In this document: piece by piece, positions 144 through 36,761 of the stretch
Numbering within the stretch: position 1 is the first letter of the stretch
Layout of the letters: the number at the start of each line of letters is the position of its first letter
Source: an uncultured Bacilli bacterium
GTDB taxonomy: Bacteria > Bacillota_I > Bacilli_A > RFN20 > CAG-826
Direction: 5' to 3'
DNA length: 45,835 nucleotides
NCBI GenBank assembly: GCA_944358865.1
Contig: CALVRV010000011.1
Span: 1-45,835, forward strand
Translations under genes and position numbers: made by a program
The notes under the pieces: model-generated
Told to the model about the DNA's origin: nothing
Databases searched by the model: none
Seen by the model: only the letters and a program-made list of their open reading frames with translations

Positions 144-171
144 TGAATTTTTACATTTTTGTTTAAATTCA
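144..171. repeat. Left copy of a 28-bp inverted repeat flanking the AAA ATPase gene
   Basis: This 28-base segment begins TGAAT and ends ATTCA. It matches the reverse complement of 1440-1467 at 26 of 28 positions, by hand alignment. It lies 25 bases before the ATPase start. The motif TTTACATTTT occurs inside it at 150-159 and once more at 130-139, exactly 20 bases earlier. It could be an operator, a promoter element or a cassette boundary. Confidence 0.75.
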
Positions 172-196
172 TACGTTAATTTGATATGCTAGAAGC

Positions 197-1432
197 ATGG
201 AAACAATAAAAAGAGAAAATTATTTGTCAAGAATTAGACCTTATTATGATTCACCTTTAATCAAAGTAATTACTGGGATACGCCGCTGTGGTAAATCTGA
301 GATTTTAAAGCAAATAATGAAAGAAATTGAAAATGGTGGTGTTGATAAAAATCACATCATTTATTTAGATCTTGAAAGCATTCAATGCAGAAATATCAAA
401 TCAGTAGAAAAATTAGAAAATGCGGTGGTTTCATTAATTAAAGATGAGAATAAATACTATATTTTTATTGACGAGATACAAAATATTCCGAAATTTGAAA
501 TAGGAATCGCAGCAATTAGAAACAGTTTAAATTGTTCTTTATTTGTTACAGGTAGCAATTCGAAACTTTTAGCAGGTAAACTTCAAGACAGATTGACTGG
601 ACGTGCTAAAGAATTTGAAGTTTATCCTTTTACTTACAATGAATATTTAGAATACAAAAATATTAATGGTATTAAATTAACACCAGATGATTTTCGCGAT
701 TATCTTCGTTTTGGCGGAATGCCTCAAAGATTTGAAGAAGCTAATGAAATAGAAATTAGAAAATATCTTATTGGACTTCACTCATCAATTATAAAAAAAG
801 ATGTTTATGGAAGTCATAAAAGGATAGATAAAGTACAATTCAAAACTGTAGCCGAGTATATATCATCAACATCGGGGAGATTGTTTTCGGCATTATCTGC
901 AGCAAAAAAATTGAAAGAGAATTTAACAAGGGAAGAACAACGTTCTTTTTCAAATTTAATCAATAAATATGCGGAATATTTAAAAGAGTGTTATTTAATC
1001 ACTGAATGTAAACCGGCATACCTTAAAGGTAAAGAACGACTTAACGGAACACGTAAGTTTTATCCTATTGACGTTGGAATTAGAATGGCTCTTGGAAATG
1101 CATACGATTATGATGATACATTTGCACTTGAAGCAGTCATTTATAACGAGTTGTTGGCAAGAGGATACGAAGTTTACTATGGGAAATTAAGAGATAATTC
1201 TGAGATTGATTTTGTTGCAATGAAAAATGGCAAAAAATGTTTTATTCAAGTTGCATATGTTATTAATAGTCAAGAAGTTAAAGATAGAGAATATGGAGCA
1301 TTTGATACCATAACTGACGGATCGCCACGTTATGTGTTATCATTAGACCAATTTGATTCATCGACAAATGGTGCAACTCATCTTTATATCATTGATTTCT
1401 TACTTGGAAAAGTTGATATACATCTATCATAA
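197..1432 (+). CDS. AAA-family ATPase with C-terminal DUF4143 domain
   Basis: The 411-residue protein has a Walker A motif GIRRCGKS at residues 27-34 and a Walker B segment IFIDEIQ around 89-95, followed by a sensor-like VTGSNSKLL near 117-125. The C-terminal part carries the DUF4143 signature with EIDFVA around 336-341. DUF4143 is related to restriction-endonuclease-like folds, but the usual acidic-x-Lys after it is replaced by IQVAY at 350-354, so nuclease activity is doubtful. Such ATPases are abundant in host-associated bacteria and their role is not established. The gene stands alone, is preceded only by a weak AGAAG, and is bracketed by the inverted repeats at 144-171 and 1440-1467. A second, diverged member of the family lies at 35577-36761. 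Confidence 0.85.
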   Translation: METIKRENYLSRIRPYYDSPLIKVITGIRRCGKSEILKQIMKEIENGGVDKNHIIYLDLESIQCRNIKSVEKLENAVVSLIKDENKYYIFIDEIQNIPKFEIGIAAIRNSLNCSLFVTGSNSKLLAGKLQDRLTGRAKEFEVYPFTYNEYLEYKNINGIKLTPDDFRDYLRFGGMPQRFEEANEIEIRKYLIGLHSSIIKKDVYGSHKRIDKVQFKTVAEYISSTSGRLFSALSAAKKLKENLTREEQRSFSNLINKYAEYLKECYLITECKPAYLKGKERLNGTRKFYPIDVGIRMALGNAYDYDDTFALEAVIYNELLARGYEVYYGKLRDNSEIDFVAMKNGKKCFIQVAYVINSQEVKDREYGAFDTITDGSPRYVLSLDQFDSSTNGATHLYIIDFLLGKVDIHLS

Positions 1433-1439
1433 TAACTGA

Positions 1440-1467
1440 TGAATCTAAACAAAAATGTGAAAATTCA
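1440..1467. repeat. Right copy of the 28-bp inverted repeat flanking the AAA ATPase gene
   Basis: The segment starts 7 bases after the ATPase stop codon. Its reverse complement equals 144-171 except at two positions. Outside the repeat, the next bases (TACGYTAA) are conserved in direct orientation with those that follow 144-171. The middle is therefore inverted while the right-hand flank is direct, because the repeat ends are themselves TGAAT/ATTCA palindromes. Confidence 0.75.
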
Positions 1468-1660
1468 TACGCTAAACTATACGAGTTTTAAACTGAACGA
1501 TATAGAGAATTCTATTTACGATTCTGCAAAGAGGCACGCTAGTAGAAAAACTAAGAGTATACATTGACGAGAGTTATTACTTTAGTAAAATAAAAAACAA
1601 CCCAGTTAAATTTGTGGATCAACTGTATACCACAAGTTTATCTAGGCATTATAGTGCACA

Positions 1661-1847: not shown

Positions 1848-3405
1848 TGCGGATATTTTTTCGGACTAATATTGATTATAATTTAACATAAATTCTTTTG
1901 GGGATAAATATCCTAATCGTCTCTTAATTCGTTTATTTTTAAACCAGATTAAATATTTTTCTAATTCAGTAATAAAATCATCACATGTTGTATATTTCCA
2001 ATCATTTGGATAAAAGAACTCATTTTTAATTGTTCCAAAGAATCCTTCACACATTGAATTGTCTGGAGAACACCCCTTTCTAGACATAGATCTTTTATAA
2101 CCATATTGTTCCATTAACTTTATCCAAGAATCTATTCTATAATGGAAACCTCTGTCGCTATGAATTAGTATCCCGCAATCACCAATAATTTCATGTGCTT
2201 CCTTTAACATTTTATTAGTTAATTCAGAATTCGGAGATTTACCAATTCTCCAAGTAATAGGAGAACCATCAAAGCAATCAATAAGAGGAGACAAATAGAC
2301 TTTACCATCTTTTAATGCAAATTCAGTTATATCTGTAAGAGCTTGTTTATATGGTTTATTCACAATAAATTTTCTATTAACTATGTTTTCAACTTGTGGA
2401 CTTATTTCTCCTTTATAAGAAGAGTACTTGAGTTTTGATTTTGGCATATAAACAAATAGTTTTTCTTCTTTCATTAACCTAATAATCACTTTTTCAGAGA
2501 TAACAATTCCATATGATTTAGACAGCTCTTGTTTTACTCTTCTATATCCATAACATTCATAATTATTAAAAAATATTTCTTTAATGATTTTCCTTGTAGT
2601 TAAGTATTTGTCAAAGTTTAGTCTTTTTATTTCATAAAAATATGTTGAACGTTTTAAATGAATTATTTTAAGCAACTCATTGATTTTATATTCTTCTTTT
2701 AAGGCGTTGATTATTTGAGTTTTTTCCTTATTGCTTAATAGAGAATAATCAACGCCTATTTCTTTTTTTAATATTTCGTTTGCTTTTTTTAGAACTTTAT
2801 TTTCAAGTTCGAGTTTTAAATGTTCTTTTCGAAGAGCTATTATTTCTTCTTCGAGTTCTTGTTTTGATTTATCTTTCTTTTTCATAATTGGTTCACCAGT
2901 TAGTTCTTTTTGCCATTCATATAAAGTAACTCTAGTAACATTATACTTATTAGCAACAGTAATTGCTGACGAATCTCTTAAAACTAAATCAACAATTGCT
3001 TTTTTCTTATCTTCATCATTTAATATCGTTGGCTTTTTATGAACTTTGTGTTTTCTAATCCATCTTTTATCTTTTTTTACCCATGCTTTTAATGATGAAG
3101 CGGATGGATAACCAAATTTTTTACATGCTTTAGTTATGTTTTCACCATGACTAAAGTAGTATTCTATTACTGACTCTTGTTCCTCTTTACTCCATTTAGA
3201 TGATTTATTCCTCGTCCTTGAAATTAAAGGTTCTCCTTTTTTTCTTTTGTCTCTCCAAGATCTTAATGTATAGCGATTAATCCCTAATGCTCTTGCAGTC
3301 TTAGATAATTGTCCATCATAGGTATCTAATAAATTTAATGCTTTTTTTATTTCTTCTATTTTGTGCATACTTGTCCTTTCTATTTAGTCCAAGTTTTTGT
3401 CTGCA
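1848..3405 (-). mobile_element. IS3-family insertion sequence (IS150-like), apparently complete
   Basis: The element has one transposase gene and imperfect terminal repeats. The left end starts TGCGGATATTTTTTCGGACTAA; the right end, read inward, starts TGCAGACAAAAACTTGGACTAA. The shared TGC-GA and GGACTAA blocks with TG termini fit IS3-family ends. I see no clear 3-4-base target duplication. The right end touches the left end of the IS21-like element, so the IS3 probably inserted at or beside it. The outer boundary could be off by a few bases, because the TGCA at 3402-3405 could belong to either element. Confidence 0.75.
1866..3368 (-). CDS. IS3-family transposase, single-frame OrfAB fusion
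   Basis: The 500-residue protein joins OrfA-like and OrfB-like parts without a frameshift. Helix-turn-helix segments are visible at about residues 6-42, 62-98 and 120-153. They are followed by a leucine-rich coiled coil at about 168-203, an HTH_21-type region at 255-310 and the rve catalytic core. The catalytic triad reads D346 (TDITEF), D405 (HSDRGFHY) and E441 (SMCEGFFG), which gives the 35-residue D-E spacing of the IS3 family. The C-terminus has the usual IKRRLGYLSPKEF. Most IS3 elements make the fusion by programmed frameshifting; here it is encoded directly. The enzyme is expected to move the element at 1848-3405. No damage is visible. Confidence 0.92.
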   Translation of the reverse strand: MHKIEEIKKALNLLDTYDGQLSKTARALGINRYTLRSWRDKRKKGEPLISRTRNKSSKWSKEEQESVIEYYFSHGENITKACKKFGYPSASSLKAWVKKDKRWIRKHKVHKKPTILNDEDKKKAIVDLVLRDSSAITVANKYNVTRVTLYEWQKELTGEPIMKKKDKSKQELEEEIIALRKEHLKLELENKVLKKANEILKKEIGVDYSLLSNKEKTQIINALKEEYKINELLKIIHLKRSTYFYEIKRLNFDKYLTTRKIIKEIFFNNYECYGYRRVKQELSKSYGIVISEKVIIRLMKEEKLFVYMPKSKLKYSSYKGEISPQVENIVNRKFIVNKPYKQALTDITEFALKDGKVYLSPLIDCFDGSPITWRIGKSPNSELTNKMLKEAHEIIGDCGILIHSDRGFHYRIDSWIKLMEQYGYKRSMSRKGCSPDNSMCEGFFGTIKNEFFYPNDWKYTTCDDFITELEKYLIWFKNKRIKRRLGYLSPKEFMLNYNQY

Positions 3406-3476
3406 CTCCCAAAAAGGGAAAATAATATTCACCAATTTGGGTAATATTTTATAATTCATTCCGAAAGGAGTGATTT

Positions 3477-4685
3477 ATGGAATTAAATTTAATCGGCACT
3501 TTAAATGTTTTAAAAACGATGAAAATGATGTCTAACTTTAGTGAACTTGCTCGTACTTTTGGTAAAGACAGACATACAATTAAAAAAATGTATGATGGAA
3601 AGGAGGCAAAAATCAAAAAGAAAAAGCCATCAGAGTTAGATCCTTATAAGGATGAAATAGTTGAGATTTTATCTCATCCTGGAGTCAAAGTGAAAGCAGC
3701 ATACTGGTATTTTAAAAACGAGAAAAATATAAAATGCAGTTATGATAATTTCAAATCATATGTAAATAAATTCAAATTATTTGAACAAGCAAAGACATTT
3801 ACTCCACATCCATTATTTGAAACCGATCCAGGAAAACAGCTTCAAGTAGATTGGGTTGAGTCAATTAAAATTACAACTATAGAAGGCGAAATAATAAAAT
3901 TTAATCTTTTCAGTGCAACTTTAGGATATTCAAGATTTCATTACTTTGAATATTCAGAATTTAAAAGTGAGTCTGACTTTAAAAGATGTCTAATTCATTT
4001 CTTTAAAAAAATAGGTGGGACTACAAAAGAAGTATTAACAGATAATATGTCAGCAATTGTTAATATTAAGGAAGCAAAAAAGCAAATACATCCATCTATA
4101 ATTCAATTTTTTAAAGATTTAGGAATAAGATTAAGACTATGTCAGATAAGAACACCTCAAACTAAAGGAAAAGATGAAGTATCAAATAAATTTGCTCAAT
4201 GGCTTAATGCTTATCAAGGGAAAATTAAAGATAAAAATCACTTATTAAAACTTATTGATAAATTAAACATCGATATTAATAAACAAAAGAATACTAGAAC
4301 AAATATTCCACCTATTCTTTTATTTAAAAAAGAAAAAGAATATTTAAGTCCTCTTCCTAACAGCGAATTATTAGATTCTTACGAAGATGAGATGCGTTCT
4401 TGCAAGGTACCATCAACATTTCTTATCGAATATAAAGGAGCTAAATATTCTGTACCTCCTTATCTTATCAATAAAACAGTTAAATATAAAGAGGTCATGG
4501 AAAAACTTTATATTTATTATCAAAACGATTTAGTAAGTGAACATCAAATTAATAAAAAGCATACAATCAATTATTACCAACACGATTATAAAAATGGTTT
4601 AATTGGAAAATTTAAAGATGATGAAGATATTGAAAAAATAACTAGTGAAAACCTTGCAAAATTTAAAGATTTAGGAGAAAAATAA
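3477..4685 (+). CDS. istA: IS21-family transposase IstA
   Basis: The 402-residue protein starts with a helix-turn-helix (about residues 18-38, FSELARTFGKDRHTIKKM). The DDE integrase core shows D125 (LQVDWVE), D189 (EVLTDNM) and E234 (TKGKDEVSNKF). The Mu-transposase-like C-terminal domain runs from about residue 310, with YKGAKYSVPPYLI and KLYIYYQNDLVSEH. A good ribosome binding site (GAAAGGAG) precedes the ATG. Its stop TAA shares a base with the ATG of the ATPase-helper gene, as is usual for istA-istB. The length is near the lower end for the family, but all catalytic residues are present. Confidence 0.92.
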   Translation: MELNLIGTLNVLKTMKMMSNFSELARTFGKDRHTIKKMYDGKEAKIKKKKPSELDPYKDEIVEILSHPGVKVKAAYWYFKNEKNIKCSYDNFKSYVNKFKLFEQAKTFTPHPLFETDPGKQLQVDWVESIKITTIEGEIIKFNLFSATLGYSRFHYFEYSEFKSESDFKRCLIHFFKKIGGTTKEVLTDNMSAIVNIKEAKKQIHPSIIQFFKDLGIRLRLCQIRTPQTKGKDEVSNKFAQWLNAYQGKIKDKNHLLKLIDKLNIDINKQKNTRTNIPPILLFKKEKEYLSPLPNSELLDSYEDEMRSCKVPSTFLIEYKGAKYSVPPYLINKTVKYKEVMEKLYIYYQNDLVSEHQINKKHTINYYQHDYKNGLIGKFKDDEDIEKITSENLAKFKDLGEK

Positions 4686-5438
4686 TGTCTAATTATATAA
4701 AATTGATTAATAATTTTGATTCTTTAAAATTAAATACTTTTAGAAATAATATTGATTCATTCATTGATGAAGTTAATAGTGGCAAAATTAATGTTGTTGA
4801 TGCGTTTTATTCTTTAACAGAAAAAGAAATGGCTTTTAGACAAGATAGAGTTAATAAAGCTATGATTACAACTTCTCATTTTCCTTATGTAAAAACATTC
4901 GACGATTATGATTTTTCTTATCAGCCAAGATTAAATAAAGATGAGATATTAGATCTTAAAAATCTTAGGTTTATACAAAATAATGAGAATATTGTTTTTA
5001 TGGGAACTCCTGGCGTAGGGAAAACACATTTAGCGATTTCTGTTGGAATAGAATGTGCAAAAAATCGATATCAAACTTATTTTATTAATTGTAATGAATT
5101 AATAATGCAGCTTAAAAAAGCTAAACTTGAAAATACTTTAGCTAGAAGGCTTAAGCATTTCACTTCTTATAGTGTTCTTATTATAGACGAAGTAGGATTC
5201 CTTCCAATTGATGGAGATGATTCTAACTTACTATTTCAATTAATATCTATGAGATATGAAAAACATCCTACTATATTTACAACTAATAAAAGTTTTAATC
5301 ATTGGGGCGAAGTATTTAACGATTCAGTTATAGCAAATGCAATGTTAGATCGTATATTGCATCATTGTAAAGTTTTTTCAAATTATAGGTCCTTCTTATA
5401 GAATGAAAGGAAAGGAGGAACTATTTAAAGAAGACTAA
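4685..5438 (+). pseudogene. istB: IS21-family helper ATPase IstB, frameshifted near its C-terminus
   Basis: IstB is the DnaC-like AAA+ helper of IS21 transposition. The intact frame shows Walker A GTPGVGKTH at residues 107-115 and Walker B VLIIDEVGF at about 164-172. This frame ends at 5401 with NYRSFL after HHCKVF, an unusual ending. Reading one base later after the T6 run at 5373-5378 gives QIIGPSYRMKGKEELFKED and a stop at 5436-5438, which is the normal IstB tail (HH, then a hydrophobic patch, then SYRMK). A one-base T insertion therefore explains the truncation. It may be a real mutation, a slippery site or a sequencing error; the ATPase core is untouched, so partial function is possible. 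Confidence 0.82.
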
Positions 5439-6150: not shown

Positions 6151-6993
6151 ATGTGGAAAAAGAAAAATGCAATCAAATCTCTAAATTGGTCTTTATCTAT
6201 TTCTTCTTTTATTGGGGCACTTTTGTCTTTTATATTACTGCCAAGTAATTTTTGGTGGATTGGGTTAATTATATTTGTAACAACATTTATAATAGTGTTT
6301 TTCACAATATATTTAGTTTTGAGATTCAAGAAACGCCACAGAATTTCGGGAAGAGGATCGGTTTTTATTGAATCTAGGTATGGTAATGTTCTGAAAATCA
6401 AAAAAGATAAACGCGAAAAAACAAAACCGGTTGTTGTGATTCCTGTTAATTCTTCGTTTGACACTATAGTAGAAGATAGCCCAAGCATTGTAGACAGAAT
6501 TATTGAGGGGACTTCGATTCATGGACAATGGTTAAGACAATATGCTTCAACACCTGAATTATTAGAAAAACTTGATAGGGATATTAGTCAATTTATTGCT
6601 AACAAACATTTGATTCCTATTAAAGTGCTAGACAATAAAAGAGGTAAGAAGGATGTTTATCCTCTAGGAAGCTATGTATTCATTGAAACAAACGATTGTA
6701 TCTTTTTGTTATTCGCGCTAACTGAATTTAACGAACATAATAAAGTTGTAAAAAAAGATGCCGAGGAATTTACTATCTTAATGAAAAAACTTATGGATAT
6801 AACTGATGAATGTGCTGGTAAACACGTCTATATTCCTGTAATGGGAACAAAAATTGCTCTTTTTGGAATTAATGATTTAGCTTCGTTTGAATATATAAAG
6901 AATGCAGCCTTAAATAAAAAATGTTCCTTGAGGGCATCTATATCTATCGTCATCTTTGAAGAGTCTAGAGATAAAGTCTCTATCTATGATTAA
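6151..6993 (+). CDS. thsA: Two-TM macro-domain-like effector, type II Thoeris ThsA-like
   Basis: The 280-residue protein begins with two hydrophobic helices (about residues 15-31 and 36-58) followed by the basic stretch RFKKRHR. The soluble part resembles a macro (ADP-ribose-binding) fold: the strand and loop VVVIPVNSSFDTIVED (94-109) replaces the usual NAAN region, and YIPVMGTKIALFGIN (227-241) looks like the phosphate-binding loop. TM helices fused to a macro domain, directly before a TIR gene, is the arrangement reported for type II Thoeris. There the TIR enzyme makes a histidine-ADP-ribose signal that the macro domain senses, and the TM part damages the membrane. Assignment rests on architecture and context; I could not run a structural search. 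The start is the only ATG near the TATAAT at 6135. Confidence 0.72.
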   Translation: MWKKKNAIKSLNWSLSISSFIGALLSFILLPSNFWWIGLIIFVTTFIIVFFTIYLVLRFKKRHRISGRGSVFIESRYGNVLKIKKDKREKTKPVVVIPVNSSFDTIVEDSPSIVDRIIEGTSIHGQWLRQYASTPELLEKLDRDISQFIANKHLIPIKVLDNKRGKKDVYPLGSYVFIETNDCIFLLFALTEFNEHNKVVKKDAEEFTILMKKLMDITDECAGKHVYIPVMGTKIALFGINDLASFEYIKNAALNKKCSLRASISIVIFEESRDKVSIYD

Positions 6994-7004
6994 GGAGGCA
7001 CAAA

Positions 7005-7631
7005 ATGAGCCATAGAGTATTTATAAGTTTTAAAAAAGAAGATTCTAATTATAAAGCAAAAATTGTTGAAAGACTTAAAGAAAAAGAAATACAAGTTAAC
7101 CACTTAGATGAAACAATTCAATCAAACAACATTGACTATGTAATGCAACAAATTCGTGATAAATGGCAAGGTTCAACGACAGTTACTGTATTTTTGATTG
7201 GGTTACATTCTTCAGAAAATGAGGGCGTTGATGCATACGGAAGAAATCACCAAAGCTTTATTATTAGGGAATTAAGATCGGCTCTTTCTGATAGAGATGG
7301 TAATCCTCGCGATGGTATTCTTGGCGTAGTTTTGCCAGAAATGGAGCAGAAAATCTATGGCGGTTCATATAAATGTGAGCATTGCCAACAGCTTATAAAT
7401 GTCGTCAATATAGATGATTCAACTGTGATTAGAGAGTTCTCTAAGAATTATTATTTAAAAGCAGATAGATGTGGACATTATAGCGAAGATGGTCGGTTTT
7501 GTGTTTTGTGTCGATATAGCGAATTTATGAATGACCCTGAAAAATATATTGATAGAGCATATGATAAGATTAATGAACCAATTGCTAAGTTTGTAACTTA
7601 TAAAGGAATTAATCATAAAGGAAACTATTAG
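7005..7631 (+). CDS. thsB: TIR-domain protein (MTH538/DUF1863-type), Thoeris ThsB-like
   Basis: The 208-residue protein opens with HRVFISFKKEDSNYKAKIV, the TIR-like first strand and helix, followed by TVTVFLIG (59-66) and the helix FIIREL with E89 near the expected catalytic glutamate. GILGVVLP (104-111) is another conserved TIR-like strand. In Thoeris such proteins detect phage and convert NAD into a signalling nucleotide. It follows the TM-macro gene by 11 bases with an AAGGAGG site, so the two are co-transcribed. An unusual insertion after residue 120 carries CEHC (124-127), C156 and CVLC (166-169), which could bind zinc. The TIR call is strong; catalytic activity is inferred. Confidence 0.8.
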   Translation: MSHRVFISFKKEDSNYKAKIVERLKEKEIQVNHLDETIQSNNIDYVMQQIRDKWQGSTTVTVFLIGLHSSENEGVDAYGRNHQSFIIRELRSALSDRDGNPRDGILGVVLPEMEQKIYGGSYKCEHCQQLINVVNIDDSTVIREFSKNYYLKADRCGHYSEDGRFCVLCRYSEFMNDPEKYIDRAYDKINEPIAKFVTYKGINHKGNY

Positions 7632-7656: not shown

Positions 7657-8631
7657 ATGGCAAATTCAAAAGAAAGAATAGGTGTTTATCGTGTTGGCGA
7701 AATAGCGGAAAACAACGGATGGCTATTTCGTGAGCAACCAATAAACGACATTGGAATTGACGCTCACATAGAATTTATTGACTCATCGAATAAACCAAAG
7801 CAACTAATAGCGTTGCAAATAAAATCTGGAAGTAGTTGGTTTAAAGAAAATATTAAAGGCTGTGTTATTTTTCGCGATATTGATGAAAATCATTATTTGT
7901 ATTGGACGATGAATTCTTTGCCTTGTATTATAGTTTTACACAATCCTGATGACAATATTTGTGTGTGGCAAGAATTGTCTAGAGATACAATTAAAAAGAC
8001 CAAACACGGCAAAGGGAAAGGATATTATGTCCAAGTTCCTCTTAACCAAATCTTCTTGGATGCATCATCTAACAAAAAGTTATTATCATTATCTAACCTT
8101 CCCGAACATATTGTGAATTACAATTTTTTGTTGTCTCAAAAACCATTTATGGAAGCAATTCAAAATGGTGGAATTGTAAAACTGCATTCTTTGGAATGGG
8201 TGAATAAATCTAGCGGTAGAGGTGATACTGAATTAATAATTGATGATGGCAGAGCGATCAGGAAGTATTCTTATCCTTATTGGTTTCCGTATACGCCATA
8301 TGTAGATGTTTTTCCTCGTTTATTTCCGTGGGCCGCTTTTACTGCTGATAAGGATTTTTATGAAGATAATGATAAAGCATTATGGAAAGATTTAAACTGT
8401 TGGTATGACAAAGAAGAAGATGATTGGATTGTGGTGGGTGAATCATTCAAAGAATTCTGTGCAAGCCTTAATCCAATGAGGAGCATCGACCATGCTGGTG
8501 AAGTTGCTGAATATATGCTCGTTCTTACATTAAATGATTTAGGAAAAGCATTTTTAAAGATAGATGAATTTGTATCGAATGTGCAACCATATAATTCCGT
8601 CAGACCCAGAGGAGGGGACGAAGAGGTATGA
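7657..8631 (+). CDS. DUF4365-domain protein, predicted PD-(D/E)XK-like nuclease
   Basis: The 324-residue protein shows the DUF4365 pattern at its N-terminus: an RVGEIA helix with E15, then NDIGIDAHIEF (D31, D35, E39) and IALQIKSG (52-58) with a QxK in place of the classic acidic-x-Lys. This is the layout of a PD-(D/E)XK-type fold with a variant active site. The domain is common in phage-defence and mobile regions; its substrate is not known. Residues about 130-324 have no recognised domain but are rich in Trp and acidic residues (for example DDWIVVGESF). It lies 25 bases after the TIR gene and overlaps the next gene by four bases (ATGA), so it belongs to the same operon. It may extend the Thoeris-like module or be an independent defence gene. 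Confidence 0.72.
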   Translation: MANSKERIGVYRVGEIAENNGWLFREQPINDIGIDAHIEFIDSSNKPKQLIALQIKSGSSWFKENIKGCVIFRDIDENHYLYWTMNSLPCIIVLHNPDDNICVWQELSRDTIKKTKHGKGKGYYVQVPLNQIFLDASSNKKLLSLSNLPEHIVNYNFLLSQKPFMEAIQNGGIVKLHSLEWVNKSSGRGDTELIIDDGRAIRKYSYPYWFPYTPYVDVFPRLFPWAAFTADKDFYEDNDKALWKDLNCWYDKEEDDWIVVGESFKEFCASLNPMRSIDHAGEVAEYMLVLTLNDLGKAFLKIDEFVSNVQPYNSVRPRGGDEEV

Positions 8632-35576: not shown

Positions 35577-36761
35577 TTATAACTTAAGCATAAGAAAATC
35601 TTTTATATTTTTATGATGAATACCTTCTTGAATCAAATCCATTCCATCCATAGTTATAAGGTATTTAGGATAGTTATCATTTATACGATTCATCAATTCT
35701 ACAGCAGCATTTAATTTCTTGTCATCCATTAAACTTGGATAAACACTAATATAAATTCTTTTGTTGTTTTTGCTTGCAACAAAACTTATTTCATTATCAT
35801 AAAATTTTCCAATAAAAACATCATAATCATTTTTTAATAAATGAACGAATATTATATTTTCTAAAAGACCTTTAATATTAGCTTTTTTATTAAAAAATAG
35901 AAGTTGTTTGAAAGATATATCAATAAAGTAATATTTATGTAATGATTTTAAAATTTGATTGTTTTTAATGTCAAGTCGATTAACCTTAAAAATCAAGTTT
36001 GCATCTTGCAAATATTCTAAATAACTTTTAATTGTTAGATGATTTGTCTTGTTTCCTAATAATGTTAAATTATCAGAAATTTTTTTAGAAGATAAAAAAT
36101 TAGATAAATTATCGCATAAATATTGGAATAAATTGTTTAATAATACGACATCGCTAACTTTCTTTTTTGCAATAATATTATTAACTAAAATAGCGTTATA
36201 TATTGATTCAACATACTGTTTACCGATATCAAATTCAGAAATATTTGTTAAAAAAGGTAATCCTCCAAATCGAAAATAATGATCAAATTCAATCCCTGTT
36301 TTTATATCATTTGAATCTGTATTTAATTCATCAAAAGTTAAAGGCAAGATGTTTATAAAATACATATGACTAGCAATAGTGTCATCGTTTTGGAGATTTT
36401 TTATATTGTCAAAAGTAAGATATAAATCAACATTTTCTTTAATTAAAAGTGATTGAATTATTTTGATATAATTATTAACTTTTTGTATCTCATCAATCAA
36501 AATATATGTGTATTCTTTCTCTTTTGATAATAATGAAATATGCTCATATAGCTTTTTATAATCTTTTAATTTTTCATTTTTTAAATCTAAAAAGTTAAAG
36601 TATAAAATCTGTTCATTTGAAGGTATTTTTTTGCTTAAAAAAGTCTTAAATTGATTTAATAAAGTAGTTTTACCTACTCCTGGAATTCCATAAATTACTT
36701 TAACTATATTTTTTTTGTTAAGAGCTATTAATTGTTTTATATATTTGCTACGTTCAAACAT
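35577..36761 (-). CDS. AAA-family ATPase with DUF4143-like C-terminus (second copy)
   Basis: The 394-residue protein has Walker A GIPGVGKTT at 25-33 and Walker B ILIDEIQ at about 87-93, matching the layout of the ATPase at 197-1432. A RFGGLPFL segment corresponds to RFGGMPQR there. The C-terminus keeps FIGKFYDNEISFVASKNNKRIYISVYP, where the DUF4143 acidic and lysine positions are further eroded. It is more AT-rich and divergent than the first copy. It stands alone. Upstream are a 13-base inverted repeat and tandem TTACATACAATTT repeats. Function is unknown; a role in mobile-element or stress biology is often suggested for this family, without proof. Confidence 0.8.
   Translation of the reverse strand: MFERSKYIKQLIALNKKNIVKVIYGIPGVGKTTLLNQFKTFLSKKIPSNEQILYFNFLDLKNEKLKDYKKLYEHISLLSKEKEYTYILIDEIQKVNNYIKIIQSLLIKENVDLYLTFDNIKNLQNDDTIASHMYFINILPLTFDELNTDSNDIKTGIEFDHYFRFGGLPFLTNISEFDIGKQYVESIYNAILVNNIIAKKKVSDVVLLNNLFQYLCDNLSNFLSSKKISDNLTLLGNKTNHLTIKSYLEYLQDANLIFKVNRLDIKNNQILKSLHKYYFIDISFKQLLFFNKKANIKGLLENIIFVHLLKNDYDVFIGKFYDNEISFVASKNNKRIYISVYPSLMDDKKLNAAVELMNRINDNYPKYLITMDGMDLIQEGIHHKNIKDFLMLKL

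What the first reader, a model, noticed from the sequence alone, without database searches (positions are those of the whole stretch)
144..1467. AAA/DUF4143 ATPase gene bracketed by a 28-bp inverted repeat
Segments 144-171 and 1440-1467 match as inverted repeats at 26 of 28 positions, placed 25 bases before the start and 7 bases after the stop. No transposase lies between. It could be a non-autonomous gene cassette, an invertible segment, or paired binding sites of the ATPase itself. This may relate to the poorly understood spread of DUF4143 ATPases.
Basis: seen in the sequence. Interest (0 to 1): 0.6.

Follow-up and report, generated by a model that had tools for sequence, protein, structure and literature searches.

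The report
Defence gene bracketed by repeated palindromes
A single candidate anti-phage gene that hops between gut bacteria carries the same small palindromic DNA site just before its start and just after its stop, and related genes do the same with their own versions of the site, which gives a first handle on how this very common but untested gene family is controlled and spreads.

Summary
The 28-bp repeat is real (26/28; 0 of 3000 simulations reach it) and is not a one-off. Near-identical gene copies (97% DNA, unrelated far flanks) in three other metagenome-assembled genomes all carry it, and a 63%-identical relative carries the same site type. Other branches of the family show the same geometry with a different palindrome: 19 of 85 homologues scored, against 1 of 195 other genes. 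The best-sampled branch has a 35-bp site, TGTCACAAATT-N13-AATTTGTGACA. In that branch the two copies are direct repeats of a palindrome (12 of 13). In the window branch the palindrome is inverted, but the bases after it repeat directly. There is no target duplication at the palindromes. One orthologous locus holds a single palindrome and no gene; another lacks gene and sites. The protein is an AAA+ ATPase with a DUF4143 domain that has lost the nuclease lysine; PADLOC names it PDC-S01, an untested defence candidate. Best reading: a horizontally moving single-gene defence cassette whose operator palindrome, at its promoter, is repeated after the stop and is probably bound by its own ATPase.

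The parts
144..171 (+). left 28-bp palindromic site; covers the probable -35 (TTTAAA 162-167)
   Evidence: the promoter assignment is inferred: the consensus scan does not list it
172..190 (+). start of the stretch repeated directly after the right site (TACGTTAA) and probable extended -10 (TG-A-TATGCT, 182-190), 17 bases from the -35
   Evidence: read; direct match 8/12; inferred function
197..1432 (+). AAA_14 + DUF4143 ATPase, 411 aa, PADLOC PDC-S01
   Evidence: Pfam AAA_14 8.9e-33, DUF4143 1.8e-14; PDC-S01 3.3e-120; structure model
1440..1467 (-). right 28-bp palindromic site, 26/28 to the left one in inverted orientation
1468..1475 (+). TACGCTAA, direct repeat of 172-179 outside the right site
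   Evidence: (D1)
1468..1540 (+). about 75 bases outside the right site shared by all four near-identical copies; found beyond the site itself only in G000 and G121 of 395 class genomes

Best explanation
This is a single-gene candidate defence cassette (PDC-S01 type). Shown here: (1) it moves horizontally as a short unit; (2) its promoter region holds a palindromic site, and a second copy of that site stands just after the stop; (3) the two copies are kept alike within a locus while the sequence differs between clades; (4) gene-free alleles exist. Inferred: the AAA+/winged-helix-type protein binds its own palindrome, the left copy being an autoregulatory operator over the -35. The right copy arose as a duplication of operator plus promoter. 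Both copies let the protein hold the gene's two ends (looping or tight repression), and as direct repeats they give a route by which the gene is lost, leaving one palindrome. The moving unit reaches tens of bases beyond the palindromes, so these are not classical transposon ends; how it inserts is not resolved.
For: Chance excluded. Same site at 97% copies in three other MAGs with unrelated far flanks, 3-4 aa and 26-36 nt differences from the window gene over 1233 nt, and at a 63%-identical relative. Paired palindromes in 19 of 85 homologues against 7 of 425 shuffled, 23 of 674 mismatched partners and 1 of 195 other genes. At least 7 changes of the pair state forced on a quick tree of 88 proteins. 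Within-locus site identity 30.9/35 against 25.9/35 between loci, 0 of 20000 permutations. Orthologous G118 site-gene-site against G112 one site, no gene, flanks 84-89% identical over 8 kb. Empty allele in G128 for the G264/G162 locus. G112 encodes no real homologue (best E 9.5e-4), so the lone site there is not kept by a present cognate protein. Upstream palindromes in many more homologues (34 upstream and 13 downstream hits at <=1 of 50 shuffles among at most 81 genes). Model pLDDT 85; best solved matches are the archaeal AAA+ ATPase 2fna (Z 16.7, rmsd 3.9, 267 residues) and STAND/ORC-type ATPases over residues 1-304.
Against: No binding or expression data. In 66 of 85 homologues no pair is scored, and 0 of 7 homologues outside the order have one, so the second copy is not essential to the family. 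No dispersed sites that would make a regulon. The consensus promoter scan does not list the inferred promoter. The boundary of the moving unit differs between copies (about 0-220 bp upstream and 53-180 bp downstream of the sites).
Confidence: 0.5

Rival explanations
1. The palindromes are the recombination ends of a one-gene mobile element and the ATPase itself (or a partner in trans) excises and inserts the segment between or around them.
For: Copies in unrelated flanks, gene-free alleles, lone intact sites in 7 of 29 loci found by the 35-mer pattern, lone site plus about 50 bp shared at 92% between two families with unrelated flanks (L110/L136), left and right sites kept alike.
Against: No target duplication at the palindromes (0-1 bp in 17 of 17 pairs). 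The only clean empty allele breaks 53 and about 117 bp outside the sites. The nuclease lysine is missing in 88 of 88 homologues. One pair of each site type per genome in the cases seen, no recent multiplication. At least 7 changes of the pair state are forced on the tree, so the second site comes and goes.
Confidence: 0.2
2. Host-encoded site-specific recombination (Xer/dif-like modules as in Acinetobacter plasmids) moves the gene between 28-bp sites.
For: 28 bp, gene between two oppositely oriented sites, single-gene modules; the window site can be read as 11+6+11.
Against: Site sequence follows the protein clade, not the host: genome G061 holds both a TGAATTT pair and a lone TGTCAC site. In the other branch the sites are 35 bp, half-sites 24 bp apart, in direct orientation. 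The left site is fixed at the gene's own promoter.
Confidence: 0.06
3. The palindromes are RNA hairpins (terminators or mRNA stabilisers) that insulate the gene on both sides.
For: Each copy can form a hairpin: -11.3 and -13.9 kcal/mol for L116 and L046; one lies right after the stop.
Against: Window hairpins are weak (-6.6 and -2.3 kcal/mol) although the DNA sequence is kept; no terminator-like site is found in 1-1900; the left copy lies at or upstream of the probable promoter; spacer bases are kept alike between left and right.
Confidence: 0.12
4. The right copy is only a leftover of a tandem duplication (second gene lost), kept by gene conversion, without function.
For: Operator plus promoter-like bases repeat in direct orientation; these genes often lie in clusters; truncated genes beside intact sites exist (L119, L161, L163).
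Against: Pair geometry is kept in 4 of 4 members of the window clade and nearly all of the 14-member TGTCAC clade over a wide spread of protein divergence.
Confidence: 0.1

Closest known systems
PDC-S01 (PADLOC single-gene phage defence candidate; COG1373 / AAA_14-DUF4143 ATPases)
   Same: The gene itself: PDC-S01 at 3.3e-120. Described in passages of PMC12988326 as ATPase fused to PD-(D/E)XK, fourth most common defence across prokaryotes, validation pending for most such candidates; the most frequent single locus in rumen genomes in PMC13356809. COG1373 is listed among the COGs most often shared between genera by transfer (19 genes, PMC10782964, Table 2).
   Different: In the passages I saw, none of these papers mentions flanking palindromes. 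Here the nuclease lysine is absent in 88 of 88 relatives.
pdif/dif modules of Acinetobacter plasmids (29 papers hold my four terms; listing and abstract starts of 15 seen)
   Same: Small gene modules between paired short sites; scars and rearrangement by site-site recombination.
   Different: Sites there are bound by host XerC/XerD; here the sites follow the cargo protein clade, lie at its promoter, and differ in length, spacing and orientation.
REP/RAYT units and IS200/IS605 elements (recalled)
   Same: One gene between two palindromes of matching sequence.
   Different: No Y1 transposase; the palindrome is not dispersed in the genome (2 copies only).
Integron gene cassettes (recalled)
   Same: One gene plus one recombination site, lone sites left after loss.
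   Different: Own promoter inside the unit, sites not attC-like by inspection; no integrase noticed beside the copies, though this was not searched for systematically.

Membership tests
PDC-S01 / COG1373 ATPases | AAA (Walker A and B) domain | tested here: met
   Pfam AAA_14 113.5 bits; K33, D92, E93 in 88 of 88
PDC-S01 / COG1373 ATPases | DUF4143 domain of the PD-(D/E)XK fold | tested here: met
   DUF4143 54.2 bits, cut-off 28.1; PDC-S01 3.3e-120
PDC-S01 / COG1373 ATPases | intact (D/E)xK catalytic motif (feature of the nuclease fold, recalled; not needed for the family name) | tested here: not met
   Q351-V-A353; no K at 353 in 88 of 88 aligned relatives; E312, D338 and Q351 kept in 86-87 of 88
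PDC-S01 / COG1373 ATPases | protects against phage | not testable with these tools
   no assay; next to Thoeris-like genes in the window
Xer/dif module | sites shared by different cargoes of one host, set by the host recombinase | tested here: not met
   G061 holds two site types; site type follows protein clade
Xer/dif module | 11+6+11 site | tested here: inconclusive
   the window site can be so read; the TGTCAC branch has 11+13+11
TIR transposon / MITE | target duplication flanking the inverted repeats | tested here: not met
   0-1 bp in 17 of 17 pairs
TIR transposon / MITE | transposase in the element (autonomous form) | tested here: not met
   only the ATPase lies between
REP/RAYT or IS200/IS605 | Y1 transposase | tested here: not met
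   Pfam scan of the only gene between the sites
REP/RAYT or IS200/IS605 | dispersed palindrome copies | tested here: not met
   2 copies in the genome within 3 mismatches
Invertible segment | both orientations relative to the flanks | tested here: not met
   5 of 5 copies with the shared right flank have it on the 3' side; no reads were available

The most novel reading that the evidence does not exclude
PDC-S01 genes of this kind are a new class of one-gene mobile element: the AAA+ winged-helix-type ATPase recognises its own clade-specific palindrome, holds the two copies together, and directs excision and reinsertion (with host enzymes or a lysine-free nuclease centre), so that the same protein-site pair serves regulation and movement, and lone palindromes are the scars of past visits.
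Probability: 0.15. Interest if true: 0.9.

Novelty: new variant of a known kind. Interest (0 to 1): 0.6.

Why it matters
PDC-S01 is reported as one of the most abundant defence candidates in prokaryotes and the most frequent single locus in rumen genomes (PMC12988326, PMC13356809; passages seen), yet its work and spread are unexplained. A clade-specific DNA site that sits at the gene's own promoter and again at its 3' end gives a concrete ligand to test, a way to delimit cassettes automatically, and lone sites that mark past losses.

Tried and rejected
Own-genome search for more 28-mers: only the two known; a loose degenerate pattern gave as many control as real hits. Viral contigs: none with the 28-mer, no relative of the protein confirmed. 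The shared 220-bp left flank of L043-L045 looked like part of the element; it resembles a tRNA/terminator surrounding (tRNA-Phe only in L045; similar sequence downstream of tRNAs in G107 and G111), so it was not taken as element. Xer/dif, TIR transposon, REP/RAYT and terminator readings were tested and downgraded (see tests). VIA-align lists no nuclease-domain match; its list is filled by the ATPase part (residues 1-304), so no fold claim is made for the C-terminal domain from that search. Solved-structure sequence search: no meaningful relative.

Homing into pre-existing palindromes was considered. The G128 allele has no palindrome, and in genus g17 only G090, G112 and G118 show the 35-bp site within 3 mismatches, so lone sites look like remnants more than targets. 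Polarity is not proven: G128 could also be a deletion between the 9-10 bp repeat TAAATAAGC(G).

Rows left out of counts: of the 29 loci, six (L126, L127, L129, L131, L132, L134) were set aside as probable chance or coding matches. L134 has only 1 mismatch but lies in a transporter-like ORF. In some searches, 3 of 88 genes at contig edges were dropped. L117 and L135 have pairs by pattern but are scored 'no'; L111 and L124 also have both sites or a decayed second site by pattern but were not among the 19.

Papers: DUF4143 gave 1 paper, COG1373 7 and PDC-S01 3 (listings only, except passages of PMC10782964, PMC13356809 and PMC12988326). Searches for palindrome-bracketed ATPase cassettes found nothing on point. 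This covers only the open PMC set.

Full report
What was checked. The inverted repeat at 144-171 / 1440-1467 exists as described (26/28) and exceeds chance: 0 of 3000 simulated flanks reach 26, and the best of the same geometry elsewhere in the window is 23. The window lies in a 1.19-Mb, 39-contig genome that holds six DUF4143 genes. The 28-mer occurs nowhere else in it within 3 mismatches, and the flanks of the other five show no matching pair of palindromes at this geometry.

The gene moves. A scan of the bacterial and archaeal contigs found 11 related loci, three of them 99% identical in protein: L043, L044 and L045. They differ from the window gene by 26-36 of 1233 bases and 3-4 residues, mostly synonymous. 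All three carry the 28-bp pair; in L045 it is 28/28. Away from the gene the four loci share nothing: L043 lies by an ABC-transporter-like ORF and a large repeat-rich ORF, L044 by a helicase-like (HsdR-type, by eye) ORF, L045 by tRNA-Phe, the window by IS genes and Thoeris-like genes. The shared block ends within about 5 bases of the left palindrome in the window, reaches about 220 bp further left in the other three, and runs 75 bp or more past the right palindrome in all four. The left extension was found at full length in 3 genomes (G061, G121, G228: the three just named, by flank sequence) of 279 in the order; the other 13 matching genomes have short hits only. The right part was found in G000 and G121 of 395 genomes drawn from the class, plus three short weak hits. 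The four copies belong to two taxonomic families.

The site belongs to the protein, not to the host. The exact window 28-mer (up to 3 mismatches) occurs in 7 of 279 order genomes, reversed control 0. Four of these are the paired copies. G224 has a 63%-identical protein between the same type of sites (left site intact, right one decayed). G144 keeps only the last 15 residues, the right site and about 110 bp of right flank at 95% identity. G095 has a 53%-identical C-terminal piece next to the site.

Other branches do the same with other palindromes. Among 85 homologues with both flanks, 19 have a left-right palindrome pair at the same geometry (left near the promoter, right mostly 0-8 bases after the stop), against 7 of 425 shuffled flanks, 23 of 674 mismatched partners and 1 of 195 other genes of the same loci. 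Sequences differ by branch, for example TGTCACAAATT..AATTTGTGACA (L015, L017, L018), TGCCCCAAATTC..GAATTCGGGGCA (L046), CCGCAAAAG..GTTTTGCGG (L078), GGGTGCAAAAC..GTTTTACACCC (L024). On a quick maximum-likelihood tree of 88 proteins the pair state needs 8 changes, at least 7 forced, against 17 for shuffled labels. It is clustered (window clade 4 of 4; nearly all of a 14-member TGTCAC clade) but arose or was lost repeatedly. Many more homologues have an upstream palindrome alone (34 upstream, 13 downstream at <=1 of 50 shuffles, of at most 81 genes). Seven homologues outside the order (Treponema, Lachnospira eligens, Methanosphaera, Lactobacillus, Peptoclostridium, two phage contigs) have no pair; three of them have an upstream palindrome.

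Direct, not only inverted. In the TGTCAC family 12 of 13 pairs match better as direct repeats (up to 35/35) than as inverted ones. In the window family 4 of 4 are inverted for the palindrome, but the following bases (TACGYTAA...) repeat directly. No target duplication abuts the palindromes (0-1 bp, 17 of 17). Within a locus left and right sites agree at 30.9 of 35 positions, between loci at 25.9; 0 of 20000 permutations reach this. They are therefore either renewed by duplication or kept alike by recombination.

Lone sites and empty alleles. The 35-mer pattern (up to 3 mismatches) occurs in 29 of 279 order genomes, reversed control 2. Of the 29 loci, 11 hold gene plus two sites, five hold a broken, cut or more distant gene with one or more sites (L109, L112, L119, L124, L128), 7 hold a lone site with no gene within 1.5 kb (L110, L113, L114, L118, L123, L125, L136), and 6 were set aside as probable chance or coding matches. 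L123 (genome G112) and L124 (G118) are the same chromosomal place, flanks 84-89% identical over 8 kb: G118 has site, gene (with stops) and a half-decayed right site; G112 has one site. G112 has no real homologue anywhere; six of the seven lone-site genomes lack a relative of at least 50% identity, G086 being the exception (54%). For the G264/G162 locus, G128 is empty: its sequence runs through one TAAATAAGC where G264 has two, bracketing 53 bp, the site-gene-site unit and about 117 bp. Polarity is not proven in either case.

Protein. Pfam AAA_14 and DUF4143; PADLOC PDC-S01 at 3.3e-120. The AlphaFold2 model has mean pLDDT 85. Foldseek's best solved matches are Orc1/Cdc6-type ATPases; realignment ranks the archaeal AAA+ ATPase 2fna first (Z 16.7, rmsd 3.9, 267 residues; ties within 1 Z unit) among STAND and ORC-type proteins, mostly over residues 1-304. 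The helix-rich stretch 184-275 is where these families carry a winged helix (family knowledge, not a separate test). Walker residues K33, D92 and E93 are invariant in 88 of 88; the DUF4143 core keeps E312, D338 and Q351, but no relative has a lysine at 353.

Mechanism. The left palindrome covers the hexamer TTTAAA (162-167), 17 bases before TG-A-TATGCT (182-190): a probable extended -10 promoter close to the start codon. This is read from the sequence; the consensus scan does not list it. In the other branch the right arm of the left site likewise ends about where a -35 would lie (by eye). The simplest account is an autoregulatory operator bound by the ATPase, repeated at the 3' end together with promoter bases. 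Shown: the arrangement, its recurrence, its transfer, and gene-free alleles. Inferred: binding, repression, bridging of the two ends, and loss by recombination between direct copies.

Known or new. The gene belongs to a family already named as a defence candidate (passages of PMC12988326 and PMC13356809), and COG1373 is on a list of genes most often shared between gut genera (PMC10782964). I found no paper on palindromes bracketing these genes in the searches (open PMC set only). I rate it a new variant of a known kind.

Noticed in passing
window 6151-7631: Thoeris-like pair beside the cassette: ThsA macro-type protein (PADLOC 5.2e-46, Pfam ThsA_Macro) followed by a ThsB TIR-like protein; the next gene (7657-8631) is a DUF4365 protein with a match to an Argonaute-associated nuclease model.
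   Followed up: partly
window 35577-36755: A second PDC-S01/DUF4143 ATPase (28% identical) on the minus strand with a strong upstream hairpin TATTTTCAAAAGTC...GACTTTTACTTTTGAAAATA but no paired site.
   Followed up: partly
window 1866-5401: IS3-like transposase (500 aa, minus strand) and an IS21-type IstA/IstB pair directly downstream of the cassette.
   Followed up: no
L066-L068, L070 (genomes G045, G040): DUF4143 ATPase genes lie in clusters; G045 has 19 and G040 17 matches to the window protein.
   Followed up: no
L110:1494-1584 and L136: A lone palindrome plus about 50 bp is shared at 92% between genomes of two families with otherwise unrelated flanks, like a tiny mobile remnant.
   Followed up: partly
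L111 (genome G062): A 126-bp stretch (the end of a neighbouring gene) is duplicated on both sides of the cassette at 98% identity.
   Followed up: no
plasmid collection: 175 Acinetobacter plasmid records encode a distant relative of the ATPase; whether they lie in pdif modules was not examined.
   Followed up: no
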